From contig CAMVNG010000001.1 in the NCBI GenBank assembly GCA_947168815.1, positions 310,001 to 374,000 of the forward strand: 64,000 nucleotides of DNA, given 5' to 3'. Shown here one piece after another: positions 16,414 to 59,652 of the stretch. Position numbers and translations under genes: made by a program. Source of the stretch: an uncultured bacterium (lineage in GTDB: Bacteria; Patescibacteriota; Gracilibacteria; Absconditabacterales; Absconditicoccaceae). Numbering within the stretch: position 1 is the stretch's first letter; each line of letters begins with the position of its first letter. The notes below the pieces were generated by a model. That model was not told the origin of the DNA. It ran no database searches and saw only the letters and a list, made by a program, of their open reading frames with translations.

Positions 16414-16977
16414 TTAAGATGGAGATTCCGCCTTATCAGCTCAAATTTCAACAGTTGATTCACCTTCACTTCTTTCAGCTCATGGAACTAAAATATCTGC
16501 TGTTCAATTTCAAATTGCTGATTCCATAACTTGTGGTGTTCACTTAGCTCTTCACATCTGAGCAAAATTATTATCTACTACTCATGTTTTTGCAGCTGCA
16601 AAAAGGTATTGAGCATCACTCACAACAGCTAGCTTTGCTTCATCTGCTGCCTTCTTTTCAGCAACTGGTTTTGGCAATCCAGACTGCAAATAAGAATCTA
16701 ACTTCAACTTATAAATATCATTATATTTTTCTTCTAACTCATCTTCTTTCTGCTGCGCCTCTAATGCAGTTGCTCAAAAAAGTTCTTGACCGACACCAGA
16801 AGTTAAATCATTTTTAAATGTTTGTTGTACATCTGGATTTTGCATAAAATTTTTCAAAGCTTCCCGAACTCCCTGAAATCTAGCATCCAATGTATCAGTA
16901 TTACCTCATTCCACATATTCAACATTGTTGGTAGCTTCAGGATCCATCAAATATACAAGCTTAAAGGAATTCATCAT
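16414..16977 (-). CDS. unknown protein, helical, in a four-gene cluster
   Basis: 187 residues, not recognised. No signal peptide is visible. The N-terminal half is soluble and helical (ARFQGVREALKNFMQNPDV). A central Lys/Glu/Ala-rich helix (ATALEAQQKEDELEEKY and PVAEKKAADEAKLAVV) looks like a coiled coil. The C-terminal part is Gly/Ala/Ser-rich (GTADILVPGAERSEG). It starts at ATG 16977 (MMNS) or 16974. It is last in a run with the genes at 17007, 17555 and 17970 and is followed by a terminator. Confidence 0.7.
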
Positions 16978-17006
16978 TTTATCCAAAAACAAAATATAAA
17001 ATATTA

Positions 17007-17528
17007 TTACTCATCTTTCAACATCATCTTAAAACTTTTACCATCCTTCACTAATTGATAAGTGAATTCAACTTCATTAATTTTCATAGTATAATGATTA
17101 TCTCACTCTGGCAAACGATAAACAGTTTCTTCTCAATCAGGAGATACTTCTAATATCAATAGAATAGTTCTCCTTTGTCCATCATACCAAAAATTTACTG
17201 GTATAATACAATCACCATTTGGACTTAAAGTTGGGACTACATCAGTTCATACCCCCTCAAATCCAAAATCTTTATCATCATGTTTTCAACTTTCAAAGGA
17301 AAGGAACTCAGGATCTTGAATATCCTTTTTAATTTTATTCATGATTAAGGAAATTTCTGAAGGTGTTAACTTTCTTTCTTTATCTGAAAGTCTATCTTCA
17401 AAACTTAATAATCCCTCTAATCAAGTACCACTACCTGTTTCTTGTATTAAATTTAAGATAGCTTGATCCAAAGAACCAGCATTTACAGGGACTTTATTCC
17501 CTACCACTTGTTTTGTCTTTTTTGTCAT
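17007..17528 (-). CDS. unknown 173-residue protein
   Basis: Not recognised. The N-terminus is Lys-rich (MTKKTKQVVGNKVPVN), followed by a helical segment with LDQAILNLIQETGSG and LTPSEISLIMNKIKKDI. From about residue 95 it becomes beta-rich with a repeating strand pattern (CIIPVNFWYDGQRRTILLIL, EETVYRLPEG, YTMKINEVEFTYQLVKDGK). No membrane segment. It lies 26 bases after the 92-residue gene and 29 before the 187-residue gene. Confidence 0.7.
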
Positions 17529-17554
17529 TTGTATATTTTAGATAGGAAATAAAA

Positions 17555-17833
17555 TTACAATGCCGTAAACATTGCATCTAAATCAGCCAAATCTTCTTCT
17601 TTTTGTTGAGATTCATGCTGTTGCATAGAATTTACTTGTTCTAATCTTTGTTTAAATTGTTGTTTTTGTACTTCAGTGTAAGTATTATGAACACTCTTCC
17701 TAAAAACTTCATAAAGTCTATCAAATACTTCTGGAGAAAGTTGATCATTCTCAAGAAGAGCCTTTAATCCCCATCCCATTTTCCAATCAGGCAAGAACTC
17801 AATCACTTGAAGCATAAACTCTTTTTTTGTCAT
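17555..17833 (-). CDS. small helical protein, paralogue of the gene at 27047-27328
   Basis: 92 residues, mostly helical: MTKKEFMLQVIEFLPDWKMG, then VFDRLYEVFRKSVHN, and an acidic C-terminus (EEDLADLDAMFTAL). It shares an N-terminal MTK-[KR]-E, a P-x-W-x-M-x-x-G core, D-x-[LI]-Y, K-x-[VI]-x-N and a hydrophobic C-terminus with the 93-residue protein encoded just upstream of the 1,593-residue gene. No known family comes to mind. There are no in-frame UGA, CGA or CGG codons. Confidence 0.75.
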   Translation of the reverse strand: MTKKEFMLQVIEFLPDWKMGWGLKALLENDQLSPEVFDRLYEVFRKSVHNTYTEVQKQQFKQRLEQVNSMQQHESQQKEEDLADLDAMFTAL

Positions 17834-21187: not shown

Positions 21188-22234
21188 CTATGCATTAATA
21201 ATCTTATCTATTTCCTGCTTAAAATCATCAAAAGAAATATTTTTATCTCTTAACTGATAAGCTTTTTCGATAACTCATTTGGGCCATCACGATATAATAT
21301 CTAAACTTTCAAACGGATCTTTCAAAGCAACCTGTCATGCATTACTTAAGAACAACTTTCATTCAATAATATTATTTTTGATAAAAGTTCTTTCATCTTC
21401 TATAAAGTTATCCAATGTAATAAATCATTCATCGACCATTCCCATACAAGAATATAAGACGTAATATGGTCACTGTCAAAGTCATCATAAATCAGCATCT
21501 TGTAAAATTTTTACAAAATCTTCATTATTTTTAGCACGATTATTAATTTTTGTCATCATAATTAATTTTTTTAAATCATCTCTATGAAGATTTAGTTTTT
21601 CGAAAACAACATCTGGTATATAAATATCTGACAAATTACAAGCCAACTTTTCTAAATCAATCTCATATTTTTTAGTATATCATGCATCATGAAATAATGC
21701 AGCTAATACCAATAAATTTAAAGTCTTTCTATCTATATTTCATTCTTCACATAATTTTACAACCGTTTCAGCAACACCAATTTCATGTCAAAAATTATGA
21801 TAAGGATTATTTTCCGAAAGATTTTTAGCTATTAATATAATATCATCTGTAATATCAGAATGCTCTTTTATATAATTAAGCTTCTTTAAATTCTCTTTGC
21901 TTCTAAATAAATTTAATGATAAATTCTCTGATAATTCTTCTTTACTTTTTCATGCCTCATTTCACAACAAATCAAAGAAATTATTAAATTCAGCGATCCA
22001 ATCTGGTTTAGAAGTATCAATTTTATCATTACTATTATTAAGGAATCGAGAAAGAATCTGACTTTTTACTGCCTTTCTAAGAACTCAATTTGAAGAAAGA
22101 TATTTATCAATTTCGTTCAATAAAACTTCATCACAAACAAACGATTCTCAAGTTTTATTCAATGAATTCTGCAATAGAACATTAATATCAAATTGAGTAA
22201 ACTTATTCTCTTCAATATTTTTCAAACTTTCCAT
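21188..22234 (-). CDS. HD-domain phosphohydrolase-like protein
   Basis: 348 residues. The metal motif is NPYHNFGHEIGVAETV (first His and HE), LAALFHDAGYTKKY (HD) and, further on, ILQDADLGGLG (final Asp). This order is that of HD superfamily phosphohydrolases, which act on nucleotides or cyclic dinucleotides. The first 130 residues are a separate charged helical region. The substrate cannot be read from the sequence. It is downstream of the 1,593-residue gene by 28 bases and so may share its transcript. Confidence 0.8.
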
Positions 22235-22262: not shown

Positions 22263-25200
22263 TTATGCTTCTTGTGTTGTTGTATTTGTTTTATCCGGTT
22301 TCTTAAATCAAGTTTTTATAAAATTAGTTTGTAATTGATAAATTTCATAATAATATGCAAAGTTCTTAGGATCCTTAATATCTATTTTAGACTTTAATTC
22401 CTCGATTGCAACTAAAGCTTCATCCACACTAATTCATCAATCTTCTCATTTTACATACTTAATTCAATTTTCTTTTATTTTATATGTTTCTGACATGAAT
22501 TCATTAAATGTGATAGTTGTTGAGTCTCACCAAGAATCACTTTCTAAAGCAACAACTGTTTTGTAATTAGATTCAATCTTAACTAAAGCCTCTCTTAAAT
22601 CCGATAATCAATCAAGTCATTTTCTTAAGTATTGAGACATGTTAATGGTTTTTGAATTATTATCATCATCAACTATTGTGAATTGTTCTCATACTTGACT
22701 CTCATAATCAGTAACTGTCTTATCTATAAATGCGATGATATCACCAGGAGTATTTAATCAAATACTTGATAAATACTGTATAAAATTATTAATTCTTACC
22801 GAATCTTTTAATTTTTTTCACTCTTGTACTCATTCAACACTATTATTAGAAAATTCATGAGCCAAATTTATCATATACGACATAGCTGCTAATTCTTCAT
22901 TTACAGTCTTAACCTCCCTACCATTTAACATATAAGTTTTTACTTTTCATTCTGTTCTTTCTGTTCACAATTGGATTAATCAATATCATTTCGGTTCAGG
23001 AAAAAACTCACAATTAATTAATAATCCATCTTTTGAAGGTATATTAAATTCTACTCTAATATCTCACTTCGCAATAAGTTCCTCGACAAGAGCACTATGT
23101 TTATTTCATTCTTTATCACTCCATTCAGCAACATAATCACCATTAGAATTTTCTTTTAATGTAAGCTTTGCATGATTTATAAGTGTAAACTCCAAATCCA
23201 TAATTTTTCAATCAGATTCATATTGATCTAATTTTGTCTTTCAACTATCTCATTTAATCAAAGCAACATTACGAAATGTTTGAGCATCAGTAGCAACATC
23301 TATATCTCATCATAACTTCATAAAATCAGGATTATTAAGGAATAATGATCAAGAACTCAAGACAGATCGTTGTTGCTGTCAATCCATAAGCTCTGCAGTA
23401 ATATCCAATCAATGGAAAAAACATTCTTTTGCCTGTTCTAAAGGAATATCATTCTCTGGTGGTTCGTGGGTATCCTTTAAGGTATACTCGCACTTCCCAT
23501 CCTTTTTAGGAACCTCAAATTGATTAGCAGGTAACCTTACTTTATCAACAATCATATGATGAGCTACCTCAGCATCCATATTCACAGCAAGTTTCGGTTC
23601 TTTTCAAAAATAATCATTTTGTGGCCTAATTGTTAAAGTTATCTTAGAATTCTTAAAAGTTGCTACTCAATTATCATCAATGGTAACAATTCACTTCCCT
23701 CCATTTTCTACCAAAGACTTAAAAGCATTCAATTCGTCCACATTTCCATAATAAGCCTCTCAATCTTTTGAATGATCTATCATTATTCAAAAACTTGACA
23801 TCGTAGCTCATAAATTTCTAATATCAATAGATGCTTTTGATGGAACCAATTGAATAATCTCAGAATGATTTGGATCAATCTCACTTGGTTTAGAAAATGT
23901 TCAATCCGGATTCTTTATAAATCAATGCTGTTCAAAATGAGAAGTTAATGCATCTAAAGCTCAAGGACTATCTAAATCATAATCCAACTTCATTACAAAA
24001 TTCGAATTTCAATCTTGATAAAAATCATTTAATGTAACCTTATGATTTGAATACAACTTTGAATTATTTGGTCAAGGTGTTAAAGAATTCCATGTAGAAA
24101 CCAATAATCACAATAATGGGATATCAAAACGATTTGCAATTTCATCAGCTCATGTTTCAACCGTCTCTTCTCACAATTCTTCTCAAAACTCAGTTCTAAA
24201 TTTATTTGCCCAACTTCTTCAAAAATTTTGGTTAATTTTACTCTCTGCATTTTCAAACATCTGATTTGCAAAAGGGTCTTTAGTTTCTGCAAATTTTGGA
24301 TTTATTCTTTTCAAAAAAGCTTCCGCCTTAGTATTCGGATTTTTTGAAAGATATCAACTTATAGACTTTCCTATTAATTGTCATGCCTTCATGAATCAAA
24401 AACAAGTTACTGTTCACGTTACAAACTCAGTTCATGCATTTATCAAAAAATCCTGTAATGAAAGTTTTCAATTCCACAACATTCTAACATCCGAAGGATC
24501 ATCAAATCTTATTTCAATTTCTTCGTCTCAAACTTTAATCGTAGTTTTGAAAATCGTATTCTGAACGAGATTATTGAGCTCTGTTCATAATCTTGATCAA
24601 ACCATAGAACCAGCTGTCATAATAGCTGCCATTCAAAGCAACGACATTCATCAAGTAGGTATAGCGGCAACCAAAGCAACAGCACATCAAATTGCTGTAA
24701 TAATCTGTATAGCATTATCTCTCAAAAATGCTAAAATCTGTTCTCATGTTTCATCATTCGAATAAACATTTTTTTTGTTCAAAATATAATCTACAAATTT
24801 ATCAATAGCTCATCATTCTTTTATTGCTCTTTCAAGCACAACCAATTGAGTAATACAATTATTCAACGCTTGTTCTTCATCTGTAGTTAAAGATTTATTA
24901 TTACGAGCTTTCTTAACATTCTCCAAGTGTGTTCTTAGTGAAATAATAGAATCTTTTTTTCATCTTAATTTTTTTGTATAATTCCTTAATTCTACAGCTC
25001 TTCTACGTGCTTCATCAGTATCAAAATCCGTCAATTTATAATCCTTCATTTTACTAATTATATTTTGTATACCATCCATTCCATTTTTCAAAGAGGAGAA
25101 CTCTTCACCATTAATTTGCATTTCCCTAGTTAAAATGCTTCCGACTCACATAGCACTAGATCTTCTAGTATTTTCTTGTTCTTCTTTCGATATAGTTTTA

Positions 25201-27044
25201 AAAGGCGTATCCTCTCATATTTTATAGATTGAAACACTACCATCTTTATTTGTTTTCGAATATGAAAGGTCATTTAATGATAAAATATTCATGTCCCTTT
25301 CTGCATAAAATCATCTAGTATCTGAATTATACGATCATCATCTATTTCATATATTATTTGCAAATTGCTTACGATAATTTCGAATAACAAGATTAATTTC
25401 TCATCTATTCGCCTTATTAAATAATTGAATTATTTTATTTTCATCAGCATTCTTAAATCTAATAAAAATAGGCTGACATCAAGGAACAGTAACCTTCTTA
25501 AAAGCTGGATGTATCTCTGGTTTGCTACTTCAAATATGTCCAGAATAATTATACACAGGTCATTGAAGCTGATGATCAAAAGCGTTAGCTTCAATAGGCC
25601 AATTCTGTTTGAATTCCGCATAAGTAACTCCCTGAACCATCCATTTTCACTTTTTATCATTCTGTGCATCAATTTGAGAGAGTAAATCATGAGTCTCTTC
25701 ACTATCTTTCCATCTAGCTTCTGCTTCTGTTCTAGCTTTCTTTAAGTCTTTTAATTCATTCTCAGAAAATAGATTCTTAATCTCTGCCTCTGTAAAATCT
25801 TGTCACATTTGTATTAGAATTTGATCTATACACCCCTGATCACCAATATCTTTTGCTAAATTTATAGCCTGTTTATACAAGTTTATTCTCTCATCTCTAT
25901 TCTTAGTCTTATCAAGACTGTTAATCTGTTTAATAATATTGTTTAAAACACCGACTTTTCTATTTAATTCTCTTTGCTTTAATAACAATGCAAATTGCTC
26001 ATTGTTCTTTAAATTTATTTCATTTTCATCGACAATTTTATTTTTTAAATTTTCAACTTTAAATAAATAATAATCAGAATCATTCGTTATATTTGAAGGA
26101 ATATCACTATCAGTCAATGGAGCTAAAAAAACATTACTTCATTTTGTTTTTTCAGCTAGTATAAGATAAATCATCAAAGTTTCGAAAGCTCATCATCAAA
26201 TTAAATTTTCAAAGTGTAATCATTCTTGTTTAAATGGAAGAAAAAATTCTAAGAAATTTTTCAATACTCTATTTTGTTGTTCATTTGATAATTCTCACAA
26301 CAATTCATTTAAATTAGGAATATTAGTTAACTGAGGAAATGCTTTTAATGCTTCCCTTCACTTTATAACTCATTCCCTCGTAATTAGTTCTTGCCTATAA
26401 ATATAAAGATTTGTAATTCCTTGGTTTTCTCCATTTCTCAAACCACTCGCTCATAACTGTCATCTTTTCCCATCTATTTGAAGATTCTCTCCATAATTAA
26501 CATTTGCCCAAAGTTGTATATATTTTACTTGAGATTCAGTATATGGAGATTTTCATGGCGTTCTATTTGCAGCAATTATCTTGTTAACAGCTTCTGATAT
26601 TCCACTAATTTTATTATCAATAATTGATTTAATCTTATTTTTCTTATCTTGAAATTCTGATCAGAATAATTGATTTCGCTCATTTAACAAAGCAATATTT
26701 TGCGGCAATATATCATTCGTCTGTATACATTCATCAATAACTTTATTTAAACTTACTTTCTCTTTTAAATCTGGATACTTATCTCAAAACTTATCTAAAA
26801 AATATTCTACTATTTTTTGTTGATTATCAGAAATATCTACTTGAGATAATATTTTTTCACACAAACCTTTTAATACATTTTCAAATTCTCACAACAGTTC
26901 TGGTGAAGTAGCTCAATTTAAAGCTTCTCCCAACCTTCATAAATTTTCATCAGATTGCAAAAACTCTTCAATTTCTTGAGAATCAATTTTTTCATTAGGA
27001 TTGATAACATCCATCTCACTTTTTAATAATTCCGCATCACTCAT
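22263..27044 (-). CDS. 1,593-residue protein of unknown function with a central membrane region
   Basis: One open frame of 1,594 codons with many UGA glycines; not recognised. Residues 1-640 are soluble and helical, with an acidic N-terminus (SDAELLKSEMDVINPNEK) and coiled-coil-like Asn/Lys-rich segments. Around residues 760-830 there are hydrophobic helices (IQIITAI, VALVAAIP, LLGMAAIMTAGSMVGSRL). A second helical region is followed by a long soluble C-terminal half with beta-rich stretches, ending EIYQLQTNFIKTG and a Thr-rich tail. A 93-residue partner ends 2 bases upstream. Its size and the single membrane core suggest an envelope-spanning or surface structural protein; this is inference. 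Confidence 0.75.
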
Positions 27045-27046
27045 AT

Positions 27047-27328
27047 TTAAAGATTATCAATAAAGTCATTAAGTATATTTTCTGCATCTTGCTCATCTTT
27101 TCTCATGGAAATAGCAGATTTTTCTTTTATTAACTCTAATACATTCTTCATTTCAGTACGTTGATTTATAGAATTAATATTTCTAATATTCTTCAGTATA
27201 TCACCATAAATTAAATCTATTAAGCCATCATTTCATTCTTCCTTTGCAATTAACAAAAATCATTCCGCCATATCCCAATAGGGAACTAATTTACTTAATA
27301 TCATAACCAACGCCTCTCTTTTTGTCAT
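27047..27328 (-). CDS. small helical protein coupled to the 1,593-residue gene; paralogue of 17555-17833
   Basis: 93 residues: MTKREALVMILSKLVPYWDM, then AEGFLLIAKEEG, GLIDLIYGDILKNIRNINS and an acidic C-terminus with QDAENILNDFIDNL. It matches the 92-residue protein at 17.6 kb in length, MTK start, P-x-W-x-M core, D-x-[LI]-Y and the shape of the tail. The stop is 2 bases before the ATG of the giant gene, so the two are translationally coupled. It could be a chaperone or adaptor for the large protein; not established. Confidence 0.75.
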
Positions 27329-27443: not shown

Positions 27444-27475
27444 TAAAAAAGGAGTTCCTTTAAAAGGAACCCCTA
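27444..27475 (-). terminator. intrinsic terminator of pilT
   Basis: GGGGTTCCT-loop-AGGAACTCC hairpin followed by TTTTTT in the minus direction, 20 bases after the pilT stop. Confidence 0.8.
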
Positions 27476-27494: not shown

Positions 27495-28604
27495 TTATCT
27501 CAAATATCCTCTATTAATTAATTCTCTCTTAATATAAGCTGGATCATTAGCTGCTTCCAAAGCTTGTTCTAATGAAATTTTCTTTTCTTCAAACAATTGA
27601 ATCAAACTTTCTTCCATAACTTGCATACCTCAAGAAATTCTATTAGTATACATAATACTCTTTAATTGATTCAATTTATTTTCTTTAATCAAGTTAGTTA
27701 CGGCCGTTGTATTAATTAAAACTTCTTGTCATAGAACTAACCCCGGTTTATCTATTCTCTTAAGCAATTTCTGAACAACAATAGCAGCCATATTTTCAGA
27801 TAATTGTGTTCTAATATGTGTTTGTTCTTCAGGAGGGAATGAACCAATAATTTTATTCAATGCTTGTTCTGATGATCTAGCATGCACTGTCGTTAGCACC
27901 AAGTGTCATGTTTCTGATAACAAAATAGCATTTCTAATACTTTCCAAATCTCTCATCTCTCAGAAAAGAATTACATCAGGTCTTTGTCTTAACGCATATT
28001 TCATAGCATTAGAGAATGATGAAACATCCTTTCCTAATTCTTTTTGATCAATAATACTTTCTTTTGGTTCAAAAATATATTCAATCGGATCTTCAATTGT
28101 AAGAATATGTTTCTTTTTATTCATATTAATTTCCTCAATTACAGCAGCAAGTGTTGTTGACTTTCAAGACCCTGTAGGTCAAGCCAAGAAAACAATACCA
28201 TTTTCTCTATAAGCTAATTGCTTAAAAATAGGAGGTAAATTAAGTGCTTCTAATGTAGGAATAGTATTTCTCAATAATCTTGATACAATCATAATATGTC
28301 CTCTTTGTCTTGAAATATTCACCCTATATCTTCTTTCTTTATAACCAACTCACAAATCAAGACTACCATGCTTTTCAAAATAATCAAGTCCTGTTTTATT
28401 CATTAATGTTAATGCAATTTTATTAAGCATTGTATCATCCAATTTAGGAAGATCTTTTTGTCTATTAACTTCCTCCATAATTCTTAAGGTTGGAGGTTCA
28501 TTAAAAGTCAGATACATATCAGTCGCATTTTTCTCAAGCATTAATTCATTAAGAAAAGCCACGTACTTTTTTGGATCTTTTAAATATTCATCGTATTTTT
28601 CCAT
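27495..28604 (-). CDS. pilT: type IV pilus retraction ATPase PilT
   Basis: Hexameric cytoplasmic ATPase that depolymerises type IV pili for twitching or DNA uptake. 369 residues. The N-terminal domain includes ATDMYLTFNEPPTLRI, and the Walker A is AGPTGSGKST near residues 141-150 with UGA glycines. The Asp box is HILTIEDPIEYIF, Walker B VILFGEMRDLE, and the His box THLVLTTVHA. It uses the PilT-type motif order rather than PilB (no zinc tetracysteine). The pilus subunits at 62.7-64 kb are the nearest related genes; no pilB or pilC is in the window. Confidence 0.93.
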
Positions 28605-54552: not shown

Positions 54553-57500
54553 TTATCCATCACACTTCACATAACTAACTTCTGATTTACAAGAAGTAAT
54601 TTCCTGATAAGCCGATGATCAATATGGAGCAGCTCAACAATTATTATCACACATTATTGTATCCGTAGAATATTTCAATGTATCACACGAAGAATCACTG
54701 ACTGATATATAACAAAGCTTTCATGGATTATCTGAACAATATTTCTCATAATCTGTAGTACCACAAGATGGGATTATCTTTCATCCATCATTACATGTAT
54801 AAAGTACACTATCTCATTCTGATGAGTAAATACAATCAACATAACAATCTACATAAGGACATCAATTTGAACAATATGTCCAATTTTTTAAATAATCCTC
54901 ATACTTACCACCATTTAAACAAACCTCAACAGATTGAGATTCATTATTATTATATCAATAAGTAGATAAAACACGATTAGCCGTTTTTCCTTCTAAAATA
55001 ACATAATTTTTTTCTTGCTCAATACAAGCATTTCAACTTGGAACATATCATCCTACACAATCCCACGTAGCAGAATATGACCTATTTCAAGTGCTTCATT
55101 TTGTAACCTTAACCGTACTTGTCGCACTCGTCAAATTTGTTCACGTCCATCATTTAAAAGTACTAAACGACCTCGTAGGATTATTTAAAGTGAAAGTACT
55201 TGTTTCAATATTATATGATGTTTTATTTGTAGAACTAACAGCACCTCATCTTAAATCATAAGAAATACTATAGTTGACTACTGCCCAATTTGCAGTATAA
55301 GATTTATTTCAAGTAGTTCATTTAGTAATTTTGACACCCTTTTGAGGCGTAGTTCAATTACTTCAAGTCCATCATTTAAATGTATATCCAGACTTCGTAG
55401 GATCTTTTAATGTAATAGTCTCTGATTCAATAGTATAACTTGATGGATTCGAAGAATCATTAGTTCATCAATTTAAAGTATATGTTATACTATATCAATT
55501 AGCAGACCACTGAGCATTTGCATTCTTAGTTGCAGAATCAGAGACTCATGGTCACCAAGAATAACTTGCTCAAGCTGCTCACAAATCCCATCAATTAAAA
55601 GAATATCATCATCTAGTAAAAGTATTAGATCTCAAAACGAATGAAGGACTTGAAACACTTCAATTACTATTAAAATATTGAGTATTAGTTGAATTAGACG
55701 GTGCAGATCATCAATCACTTCCATTTCATTTATACGCAATAGTTAATATTCTGCTGTATACAGCATAATAATCTTTTGATGAAGATGTTAAAGACGTATA
55801 CGTCGTATCATATACTGCAGCTTTAGCATCCGTATCAGATCTTCGTCACAAAATAGTCCAACTAGGTGTCGTAATTGAATAAGGAATTCAAGAAGGGATA
55901 GAAACAGAATAATTACCCTCCGTGTTATAGTATTGAGTAGACGTACTTTTCGTTCAATTTTTTCAACTATAGAAATTAGCAGTTCTTTTATATACAGCAT
56001 AAAAATTAGTAGAACAATTATTTAATACTTGATTCTCAGTACTATTTACCGTTTTATCTTTTGCATCTACATCATTTCTCCATCCTAACAAAGTCCATCA
56101 ATCAATAGCATTTGGAGATGATGGAGTTACAACTCTACATACACCATTACTATAATATCACGTAGCCTTTTTACTAACAGATTTATTCGTAGAACTATAG
56201 AAATTAACAGTTTTATACATAATAGCATAAAGTTTTATTACAGCACCATCTGTTTCTGTCAAATTTAGAACAGGCAATTGGTCAGTATATGTTCTCTCAA
56301 AATTCTTATCAGCAAGAGACCAACCATAAAAACTATAACCATCTTTAGATATTCATAATGAAGAAGCAGAAGTTAAAGATTTTGAAGTATCATAATAATG
56401 AGTTGAAGTTCAAACTTTATCTCAATCGTAATAATATTCAATAGTATAACTATTAGCATAACAATGTTTATCAGAATCCTTCACATGATATCATGTATCA
56501 CAAGTATACATACAAGTACTAGTTCACGTTCAATCTTTCACAACAGTATTTGATGTATATGTTCGCTTTGTTTCTGGAGTATATAGATAATCCTCCTTAC
56601 TTGAATCAAGACTTTGTGTAAAGATTCCTGTTCCATGAACATATCACTTAGATGGCCATGTTGTCGGATTAGTTCACTGAAAACAATCAATCTGTCTTGT
56701 ATTCGCATAACACCTCTGAGATCACGTATGGAAAGTATATCAAGAATCACACGTTCAACAATTAACCATTTCTCATCAATATTGTCAAGGGCATTTCCAT
56801 TTCAACCACTTATCTGTCGATCACACTTGCCAAGTTCTTCAATCTCAATACTCAGAATGTCATGTCAAAACAGGACCATGTAAATTTAATGAATTCAAAA
56901 CACACGCCGGTTCTCCTTGATTTAAGGAACATTTTCAAGCCTCTTCCTTACCTGCAACATAAGCCACACAAGAAACAGCAGCATAATCTACCTCTCAATT
57001 ACAAGTCCATGTTCGCCATCATTTAGCCCTCAATGCAACTTCAGGTCATTTAAAATTTCAAGTTTCCTTATTATAAGTATAATCAGTATCTTTATAGTAA
57101 GGAGTTCAACTTACTCACATTGAAGAATCACATAATGAAGTGCTACTATAATTCGTTAAATTAGCTGATTCAGAAACATAACTGTCATTTAATGAAGAAG
57201 AACAAACACCAACAGCTGGAGGCTCACAATTATTTCAAACTCTTTTATAATCTTTTGGACACGTCCACTCACATTCAGATAGCGATCAATTAGTTTCAAA
57301 GACTTGATAATCAACATATTTCCATCTAACACCTTTTCGTTTCCAAGAAGTCCAATTTCACTCTCATCATACATCAAAGACTATTCATTGTCATTTAACA
57401 GCACCTGTTCATGGCACAGAACCATCAGTTCAAGTACCACAATTTCGATTCTTTACATTTGACACACATCTAGCTGTTCAATTCACAATCTCCAAATGAG

Positions 57501-59427
57501 TATCACCTTTATCCGAACAAACACAAGAATCTCATTCTCTTACCAATCAAAGATTTGCATTACATTTCCATTCACAACTTGTAGGTCAATCATATCACAT
57601 AGATGTATAATGAAAAGTATCAGATTCTCATAAAGTTCATGGATTCCAAGATACATCATCAAGATAATCTTTCCATTTAAACGAAATTCAAGAAGGCTTA
57701 TTCGTACATGAAGAACAACTAGTTACTGATCATCAATCAGACCACTGTCAAAGTCAACATTGCACACATGCATTATTAGAATTATTTTGATAACTCACAT
57801 AAAATCATGACAAACATGTAAACCTACAATTATTTTTATTTCATCAGGTTCAAATAGAAACAAAATTACCAAAATATGGTGTTCCATCTTTCAATGTACC
57901 TCATGTTCAACTATTTGAAGAAACATTTGCATTTCCTTTAGGCATTTCACATCTAGAACAACTTCATGACTGATTATCTGCTTTTGTCCATTCTCCTATA
58001 GAACATATAGTACAAGTTCTCGCCTGTTGATCATACTTATATCAAGCCTTACATGAAAAACCACAATCATCCACTCAACTTCACGCAGTTCTCCACTTAT
58101 CTCTGTTAGCAATCTCAGTACACTGAACACAGCTTCAAGTAAACCATCATACAGGATTCCAATTTGTAGAAGTATCACCTGTCCTTGGTGCATATCAAAC
58201 TTCACAAGTATAAACACATTCTCTATCCCCACCTATTCAAGATTCAACACCACCATAAGTCCAATTTGGATATTTCCATTCTCATGATCAATTATTTCCA
58301 TCAGAATACCATCTTAATTTTCAGTTTGATGCTTTTTTAACCACATGAGTTAAACTTCACGAACAATTAGTTGTTCATGCAGAACCAGCTTTTGCACAAG
58401 CATATTGAGTAAAAGAATCTATAGACAAAGGTACCCAGGTTTCACCATTACATCCACATAATCACACATTATTTCAATTCTCAATATAAGCTATAGTTCA
58501 TTTCACATCAGGCCTATTTTTACTACATTCCAATCACAAAGCCTGGCTATTAGCATTAATCTGACCTGATTTTTTAATATATAGAACTCCAGATTTACTA
58601 AGATCCAATTTTAATTTTGGACTACTTGTATTTAATCAAAAACCTTCCGATGTATTTGCATAAAATGCTTTAGAATAATTCGGAGTAAATGTTCAAGTAT
58701 CAGACCATACAAATATACTACTATAAGTATGAGAACCGTTCTTGGCTCCCTGAATATTTCCTCACATAAGAATAGAATTACTAGAAACTGTATTACCCCC
58801 CTCTCATAATACAAGAAAATATTTAGCACTACTCGTATTTTTAGATCAAGTACCTCAAAGGAAAACTTGATACTCTCAAGCATCTCACGTATTTAAATAT
58901 CACCCTATAATTAATGAATTAGGATTTACATTTTTCAAAGTATTTTTCTCTCATCAAACAATTACAGATCAAGTTAATGAACGAGTTCATGACTTTGATC
59001 AATTAATGGTATTTCCTTTTCATCAAACAATAGCTGAATAATTAGAATTACTATTTGATATAATATTTTTCTCACCTCACAAAGTTACATTACCAGAACC
59101 ATGAATTTGATTTCAACTTCATATTGCAAGAGCATCTGCATTTACAGCACCTTCAATAATCAATGCATTAAGATCTGCATCATATTTCAAAACAACAGCA
59201 GTCTTACTCATTGGATCATCTGTATACAACACTAATGATGTAAGATACTCAGTTACATTTGATACTCCTGTAACTACAATTCATTCTGTAGTTTCTTCTG
59301 GATCTGCAGCAAAACTAGGAATAGATAATGCATGCCATAAAGCAAAACAAGAAACCCCCAATAATCCAACTACTAATGGAGCTATAACTCAATTTCGTTT
59401 ACTTTTTTTTGTTTTACGTGAGAACAT
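54553..59427 (-). CDS. giant cysteine-rich surface adhesin with Listeria-Bacteroides (InlB B-type) repeats
   Basis: 1,624 residues. A Lys-rich start (MFSRKTKKSK) leads into a hydrophobic signal (APLVVGLLGVSCFAL). Residues ~90-240 have autotransporter-head-like repeats (NYSAIVGGKGNTING, SVIVGGEKNTL, SLIIGGYLNTG). Residues ~320-980 are Cys-rich modules with C-x-x-C and CxxGY patterns (CTICSIGEWTKADN, CVQCGLGQWSDGG, CEWTCPKDYKR). From about 990 to 1,440 there are InlB-type repeats (YTIEYYYDGDKVGTS, ITYTLNGGTNDSSNPSS, FKGWTGSNGTTP). A Cys-rich tail ends it. Secreted and disulfide-rich, it is likely to bind a host cell. Confidence 0.85.
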
Positions 59428-59652
59428 CACACAATAGTAAATATAAAATATTCCTAATAATGATATTCTTTTTTTATAGTTTGTCAAATTTTCACGCTAT
59501 TCCCTCGAAGGTCACTACTTCTTTTTTTTCAAAAACTATAAAAACCTCATATTACTGCTTTTCTTCTATTTATATTACCTAATTTGTCAAAACAAAACGC
59601 ATAAAAATCCCCTTTACATTAAAGGTTTTATATAAAAATTTATGAAAAAATA
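59428..59652. other. 225-base gap between dnaX and the adhesin gene
   Basis: AT-rich; holds the adhesin promoter listed below. No open frame. It follows dnaX on the same strand, so dnaX transcripts run towards it; I see no clear terminator. Confidence 0.5.
59460..59487 (-). promoter_or_regulatory. probable promoter of the adhesin gene
   Basis: In minus orientation TTGACA (59482-59487), a 16-base spacer and TATCAT (59460-59465), 33 bases before the ATG. Confidence 0.6.

What the first reader, a model, noticed from the sequence alone, without database searches (positions are those of the whole stretch)
22263..27044. 1,593-residue unknown protein with a single membrane core
One of the two largest genes of the window, it has no recognisable domain: a soluble helical N-terminal half, a short cluster of membrane helices, and a soluble C-terminal half. 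In a small genome a gene of this size must matter; it is adjacent to pilT and an HD hydrolase.
Basis: inference. Interest (0 to 1): 0.6.

Follow-up and report, generated by a model that had tools for sequence, protein, structure and literature searches.

The report
Modular effector-like giant with enzymatic tail
The large 'unknown' protein looks like one of a swappable set of giant weapon- or signal-like proteins of tiny, probably host-attached Gracilibacteria: each is encoded straight after a small helper-like gene, and this one ends in a probable nucleotide-transferring enzyme followed by a gene that may undo or guard against it.

Summary
The gene is real: minus strand, 22263-27044, 1,593 aa, read only with UGA=Gly (87 codons; table 25). 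No Pfam, NCBIfam, PHROG or PADLOC family reaches significance. It is nevertheless a mosaic. Residues 1 to ~1150 (helical, one hydrophobic hairpin at ~776-820) match a patchily distributed family of large proteins. Residues ~1176-1580 match a different protein (58%), where the same segment sits on another N-terminus and is again followed by the HD gene (66%). Invariant DxD and Glu residues and weak structural matches point to a Pol-beta-type nucleotidyltransferase. Related giants carry other C-terminal enzymes: zeta kinase, RelA/SpoT, adenosine deaminase, phosphatases. NTase, zeta and RelA/SpoT modules are each followed by an HD-hydrolase gene. A ~93-aa helical gene (27047-27328) ends 2 nt upstream; 65% of 82 members of that small family directly precede an ORF of at least 450 aa (controls 3-5%). 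None of the large partners shows a signal peptide. pilT is in a separate unit. Best reading: an accessory polymorphic-toxin-like effector with a dedicated targeting factor and an HD immunity gene. Export route, delivery, toxicity and substrate are not shown.

The parts
22263..27044 (-). Large effector-like protein, 1,593 aa (P0001), table 25
   Evidence: intact ORF with 87 TGA=Gly codons
25725..27044 (-). Residues 1-440: helical N-terminal part; residues 5-181 match the N-terminus of another partner of the small gene (L018)
23574..25724 (-). Residues 441-1157: shared core (family A1), related to giants in code-25 and standard-code families of the class
24585..24719 (-). Residues 776-820: the single hydrophobic hairpin
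   Evidence: hydropathy 2.2 at 778-796
22266..23573 (-). Residues 1158-1593: exchangeable C-terminal module, predicted Pol-beta-type nucleotidyltransferase; invariant D1247, D1249 and E1346
21188..22234 (-). HD-domain hydrolase gene, 348 aa, 28 bp downstream; travels with the C-terminal module (66% identical pair in G039)
27047..27328 (-). Small ~93-aa all-helical gene ending 2 nt upstream of the giant; family-wide companion of large ORFs (probable ATG at 27328; ORF caller starts at TTG 27361)
27450..27474 (-). Terminator-like hairpin that ends the pilT unit, so pilT is not in this operon
17555..17833 (-). Second member of the small family in the window, followed by 173-aa (17007-17528) and 192-aa (16414-16992) genes

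Best explanation
A three-gene accessory cassette of polymorphic-toxin/effector type. SHOWN by sequence: a ~93-aa helical gene, a 1,593-aa mosaic protein and an HD-hydrolase gene sit in one tight run (gaps 2 and 28 nt). The N-terminal/core part and the C-terminal module have separate evolutionary distributions. The C-terminal module keeps the acidic residues of a nucleotidyltransferase and stays with the HD gene when moved to another N-terminus (G039). The small family marks large, signal-less, modular proteins across the lineage. INFERRED: the small protein binds the N-terminus of the giant and targets it for export by a route that is not T7SS. The hydrophobic hairpin helps the enzyme part cross or anchor in a target membrane. 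The NTase transfers a nucleotide to a tRNA or protein of the host/prey or a rival cell. The HD hydrolase removes that group in the producer (immunity), as the HD part of GlnD removes UMP (general knowledge) and small alarmone hydrolases undo toxSAS products (PMC12691689).
For: Sharp mosaic boundary: N/core relatives align up to residues 1080-1152 and then stop, while the G039 relative aligns only from 1176 to 1580. That G039 protein carries a different ~110-aa N-terminus, itself related to second genes of small-gene operons of the same genus (E=1e-6), and is followed by the HD gene at 66% identity. NTase: D1247, D1249 and E1346 invariant in six homologues from two code-25 genome families. AF2 confidence is 80-90 over fragment residues 91-190; the top PDB hit is an NTase-like protein, with further NTase-fold entries among the first 50 (3c18, FAM46A, cGAS, CdnE), all weak. 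Writer/HD pairs recur: zeta kinase (Pfam 1.2e-13) + HD_4; RelA/SpoT fused at the C-terminus of L106 and free-standing in L018 (61% identical), each with an HD_4 gene downstream. Other tails: adenosine deaminase 1e-25, PP2C, metallophosphatase, HATPase. Small gene: 53 of 82 members followed within 60 bp by an ORF of at least 450 aa, against 6 of 180 and 31 of 669 controls. No signal-peptide-like segment in the first 45 residues of the large partners although some carry LysM, M23 or NAGPA domains, implying extracytoplasmic sites. Patchy presence.
Against: No experiment; no toxicity, export or immunity shown. No cognate secretion apparatus identified: one FtsK only, no VirB4 match in the own genome and none above cut-off in nine relatives, no EssB. 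The NTase assignment rests on motif plus a partly low-confidence model (mean pLDDT 57; best Foldseek E 0.022). Several related giants have no gene directly downstream (L114, L132, L088). The NTase module is followed by a non-HD ~170-aa gene in family f4. The small gene also precedes partners that look nothing like toxins.
Confidence: 0.5

Rival explanations
1. Intracellular toxin-antitoxin or abortive-infection system: the giant senses a threat (for example phage) through its N-terminal/core part and releases NTase activity inside the producer; the HD protein is the antitoxin.
For: The NTase-HD pair also exists as a smaller 506+348-aa pair without the core. The f4 NTase relatives sit beside restriction-type genes by eye. 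RelA/SpoT + hydrolase pairs are known antitoxin arrangements (PMC12691689).
Against: No PADLOC model matches. The shared small gene also accompanies proteins with peptidoglycan-acting domains, hard to reconcile with a purely internal role. Membrane hairpin and 1,100-aa carrier are unusual for this.
Confidence: 0.2
2. Envelope or surface protein used to attach to or feed on the host, the C-terminal enzyme being a housekeeping or regulatory domain.
For: Giant surface proteins are described in Vampirococcus and Gracilibacterium genomes (PMC8080830, PMC6851277); one membrane hairpin is present.
Against: No signal peptide, no adhesion repeats, no SLH or fibronectin domains; exchangeable nucleotide-modifying tails do not fit an adhesin; absent from its closest relatives.
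Confidence: 0.12
3. Polyvalent protein of a mobile element (phage or conjugative element) that is injected with DNA.
For: Polyvalent proteins carry a similar domain list: NTase, RelA/SpoT, ART, peptidases (PMC5512222).
Against: No phage, plasmid or viral-contig match; no phage or conjugation genes seen beside it; no T4SS ATPase above cut-off.
Confidence: 0.08

Closest known systems
LXG polymorphic toxins of type VIIb secretion with Lap1/Lap2 targeting factors (PMC9600955)
   Same: Small ~100-aa helical partner gene, long helical N-terminus, variable C-terminal toxin, immunity gene downstream, no signal peptide
   Different: No LXG or WXG100 match, only one small gene, five predicted helices rather than a helical hairpin, no EssB and only a single FtsK in the genome, large membrane-hairpin core
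toxSAS / exported alarmone synthetases with hydrolase or other immunity proteins (PMC12691689)
   Same: Nucleotide-modifying effector domain paired with an HD hydrolase gene; RelA/SpoT tails occur on related small-gene partners (L106, L018)
   Different: P0001's own tail is an NTase-like module without detected RelA/SpoT homology; its HD partner does not match HD_4; export domain is unknown
Polyvalent proteins of phages and conjugative elements (PMC5512222)
   Same: Giant multidomain proteins mixing NTase, RelA/SpoT, peptidase and other effector domains
   Different: Chromosomal, no mobile-element context found, two- or three-gene cassette with a small gene
GlnD / PII uridylyltransferase (NTase + HD)
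   Same: NTase writer and HD eraser of a nucleotidyl group working as a pair
   Different: Analogy from general knowledge only; no homology tested or found; here the two are separate genes
AbiEii-type NTase toxins
   Same: Pol-beta-fold NTase used as toxin (general knowledge)
   Different: No Pfam or PADLOC match; partner is an HD hydrolase, not AbiEi

Membership tests
Polymorphic toxin system (general) | Conserved N-terminal/core part with exchangeable C-terminal enzyme domains | tested here: met
   boundary at 1150-1176; zeta, RelA/SpoT, NTase and others on related carriers
Polymorphic toxin system (general) | Immunity gene directly downstream, matched to the toxin module | tested here: inconclusive
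   HD gene follows NTase (2 genomes), zeta and RelA/SpoT modules, but f4 NTases lack it and protection is untested
Polymorphic toxin system (general) | N-terminal domain linked to a known export system | tested here: not met
   no Pfam/NCBIfam domain; no T7SS EssB, no VirB4 match in the own genome
LXG / T7SSb effectors | LXG domain and T7SSb apparatus | tested here: not met
   no LXG hit; no EssB with positive B. subtilis control; single FtsK
Pol-beta-type nucleotidyltransferase | Catalytic hG[GS]...DxD...[DE] residues | tested here: met
   SSGSLFLN..GGDIDVA and INCEFF; D1247, D1249, E1346 invariant in six homologues; the GS pair is degenerate in f4 members and L018
Pol-beta-type nucleotidyltransferase | Fold | tested here: inconclusive
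   pLDDT 80-90 only in the core; best Foldseek hit NTase-like 5uvd at E 0.022, prob 0.63
HD phosphohydrolase (gene 21188-22234) | HD domain with H...HD...D residues | tested here: met
   Pfam HD 9.9e-5, above cut-off; H146/H150 and H182-D183 conserved in the pair; weak PDE9A similarity
Phage tape-measure / virion protein | Homology to phage proteins or phage context | tested here: not met
Polyvalent proteins | Location in a phage or conjugative element | tested here: not met

The most novel reading that the evidence does not exclude
Code-25 Gracilibacteria possess an undescribed export route for signal-less giant proteins, addressed by a dedicated family of ~93-aa helical targeting factors, and use it to deliver a swappable arsenal of nucleotide-modifying effectors and wall-acting enzymes into or onto host, prey or rival cells; P0001 is the NTase-armed member with HD immunity.
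Probability: 0.35. Interest if true: 0.85.

Novelty: new variant of a known kind. Interest (0 to 1): 0.62.

Why it matters
How CPR/Patescibacteria that live on other cells act on their hosts is largely open; published accounts list giant surface proteins, pili and Sec (PMC8080830, PMC6851277, PMC13059738). A small marker gene that flags large modular proteins would give a simple genomic handle on candidate effectors in dozens of genomes. Writer/HD-eraser pairs suggest a biochemical test in ordinary E. coli.

Tried and rejected
Tape-measure or prophage: no phage, plasmid or viral match. T7SS/LXG membership: no EssB, one FtsK, no LXG. Weak Pfam hits Pch2_N, Phage_lysozyme2, AP2 and HlyD: below cut-off, judged chance. 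PDB sequence search with the C-terminal, core and small-gene profiles gave nothing convincing: an RNase P subunit at E 1.3, membrane/coiled-coil hits, designed helical proteins. Structure search with the small-gene model: best E 1.9. pilT association: rejected by the terminator and by congeners. First genome-contig scan with the whole protein found nothing, probably because TGA=Gly defeats back-translated patterns. A strict EF-hand-like N-terminal pattern was tested: 11 of 53 partners against 4 of 456 controls, but P0001 itself matches only loosely, so it is not used as a defining feature. Rfam: no RNA family in the window.

Full report
CHECK. Under table 11 the region has only short ORFs. Under table 25 (TGA=Gly) there is one intact minus-strand ORF, 22263-27044, 1,593 aa, with 87 TGA codons. 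The whole genome (1.29 Mb, 18 contigs, 99.7% complete) holds one copy. No family in Pfam, NCBIfam, PHROGs or PADLOC reaches significance. Hydropathy shows a single hairpin near residues 776-820 and no N-terminal signal.

OPERON. Reading the minus strand: pilT (27495-28604), a strong terminator-like hairpin (27474-27450), a ~93-aa gene (ATG 27328 to 27047), a 2-nt gap, the giant, a 28-nt gap, the HD gene (22234-21188), then murB 78 bp on. Gene order around the cassette is not kept: in both genomes of the same genus murB and pilT lie on different contigs with other neighbours and without the cassette. It is therefore an accessory cassette.

MOSAIC. Eight of 49 genomes of the family match P0001. 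In G010, G037, G003 and G024 the match covers the N-terminal/core part and ends at residues 1080-1152, at 25-34% identity over most of its length. In G039 it covers only 1176-1580 at 58%, and that 506-aa protein is followed by the HD gene at 66%. The G039 N-terminus is different and is related to second genes of small-gene operons in the same genus (E=1e-6). In another code-25 family (f4) the same C-terminal module ends 834-864-aa proteins with yet another N-terminus and a non-HD downstream gene. So the C-terminal ~430 aa is a transferable module, sometimes but not always with HD.

C-TERMINAL MODULE. Five of six homologues share SS[GN]xxxxx...DxDV; the DxD pair and a later Glu (D1247, D1249 and E1346 of P0001) are invariant in all six. 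AlphaFold2 with five admissible sequences gives pLDDT 80-90 over fragment residues 91-190 but 57 overall. The best PDB structure match is a nucleotidyltransferase-like protein (prob 0.63, E 0.022), with 3c18, FAM46A, cGAS and CdnE further down; all are weak, and CorA and other unrelated folds are mixed in. Sequence profiles find no PDB relative. I call it a predicted Pol-beta-type nucleotidyltransferase, moderately supported.

HD PARTNER. Pfam HD is above cut-off. The profile search shows only weak similarity to PDE9A around the HD motif.

RELATED GIANTS. The core profile (A1) finds 35 of 353 genomes of the class, including standard-code families with 1.5-3-kaa ORFs. C-terminal modules on related carriers (by core or by the small gene) include Zeta_toxin (L014, 1.2e-13), adenosine deaminase (L114, 1e-25), Metallophos (L100), HATPase (L107), PP2C/SpoIIE (L088), M23 (L132), and cNMP-binding plus a weak zeta hit (standard-code L091). 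A ~75-aa linker lies before several of these tails; P0001 lacks it. RelA/SpoT is fused at the end of L106 and free-standing in L018 (61% identical), each followed by an HD_4 hydrolase gene (60% identical). L014's zeta tail is also followed by HD_4. The repeated writer/HD-hydrolase pairing is the main ground for reading the HD gene as immunity.

SMALL GENE. The small family is predicted all-helical (AF2 pLDDT 75, five helices) with a conserved C-terminal LDxxL-type end. It occurs in 44 of 49 genomes of the family and sporadically in three other families of the class, and was not detected beside the standard-code giants. Of 82 members, 53 (65%) are followed on the same strand within 60 bp by an ORF of at least 450 aa, 34 by one of at least 1,000 aa. 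Controls from the same loci: 3% of other 80-140-aa ORFs and 5% of genes of at least 150 aa. None of the large partners shows a signal-peptide-like segment in its first 45 residues by a simple hydropathy scan, yet some carry LysM, M23 or phosphodiester-glycosidase (NAGPA) domains. That argues for export without a Sec signal. The pattern resembles LXG toxins with Lap partners (PMC9600955), but LXG and EssB are absent and only one FtsK is present, and no VirB4-like ATPase is found in the own genome. The export route is unknown.

VERDICT. Polymorphic-toxin-like effector cassette with a new type of small companion: shown for architecture, linkage and modularity; inferred for export, delivery, toxicity and immunity. 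Published work notes giant proteins and RelA/SpoT multiplicity in these bacteria (PMC8080830, PMC6851277); I found no description of this small-gene/giant cassette in the papers searched, which cover open-licence literature only.

Noticed in passing
window 16414-17833 (-): A second small-family gene (17555-17833) leads a 92-173-192-aa gene run; the 173-aa gene has relatives after small-family genes in several genomes of the family, instead of a giant.
   Followed up: partly
L130/L189 (own genome C1:449228-449500): Third small-family gene of this genome, followed by a 1,488-aa protein without known domain and then a 1,747-aa protein with a signal-peptide-like start.
   Followed up: partly
window 54553-59487 (-): Largest ORF of the window (1,644 aa) carries Listeria-Bacteroides (Flg_new) repeats, so probably a surface protein; no sign of relation to the giant studied.
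   Followed up: partly
L186, L187, L188: In code-25 family f4 the NTase module ends 834-864-aa proteins followed by a ~160-177-aa gene; by eye they neighbour restriction/helicase genes.
   Followed up: partly
L014:9320-14608, protein residues 1130-1204, and others: A ~75-aa linker (DAHNxxGxxYNL...ENGIxG) sits before the C-terminal modules in about a dozen giants, including a standard-code one (L091).
   Followed up: partly
L017:13401-15719 (-); L016:4535-6916 (-): By eye, a calpain-like Cys/His/Asn arrangement in a 772-aa neighbour, and HExxH and ADP-ribosyltransferase-like stretches downstream of an N-masked gap; no Pfam support.
   Followed up: no
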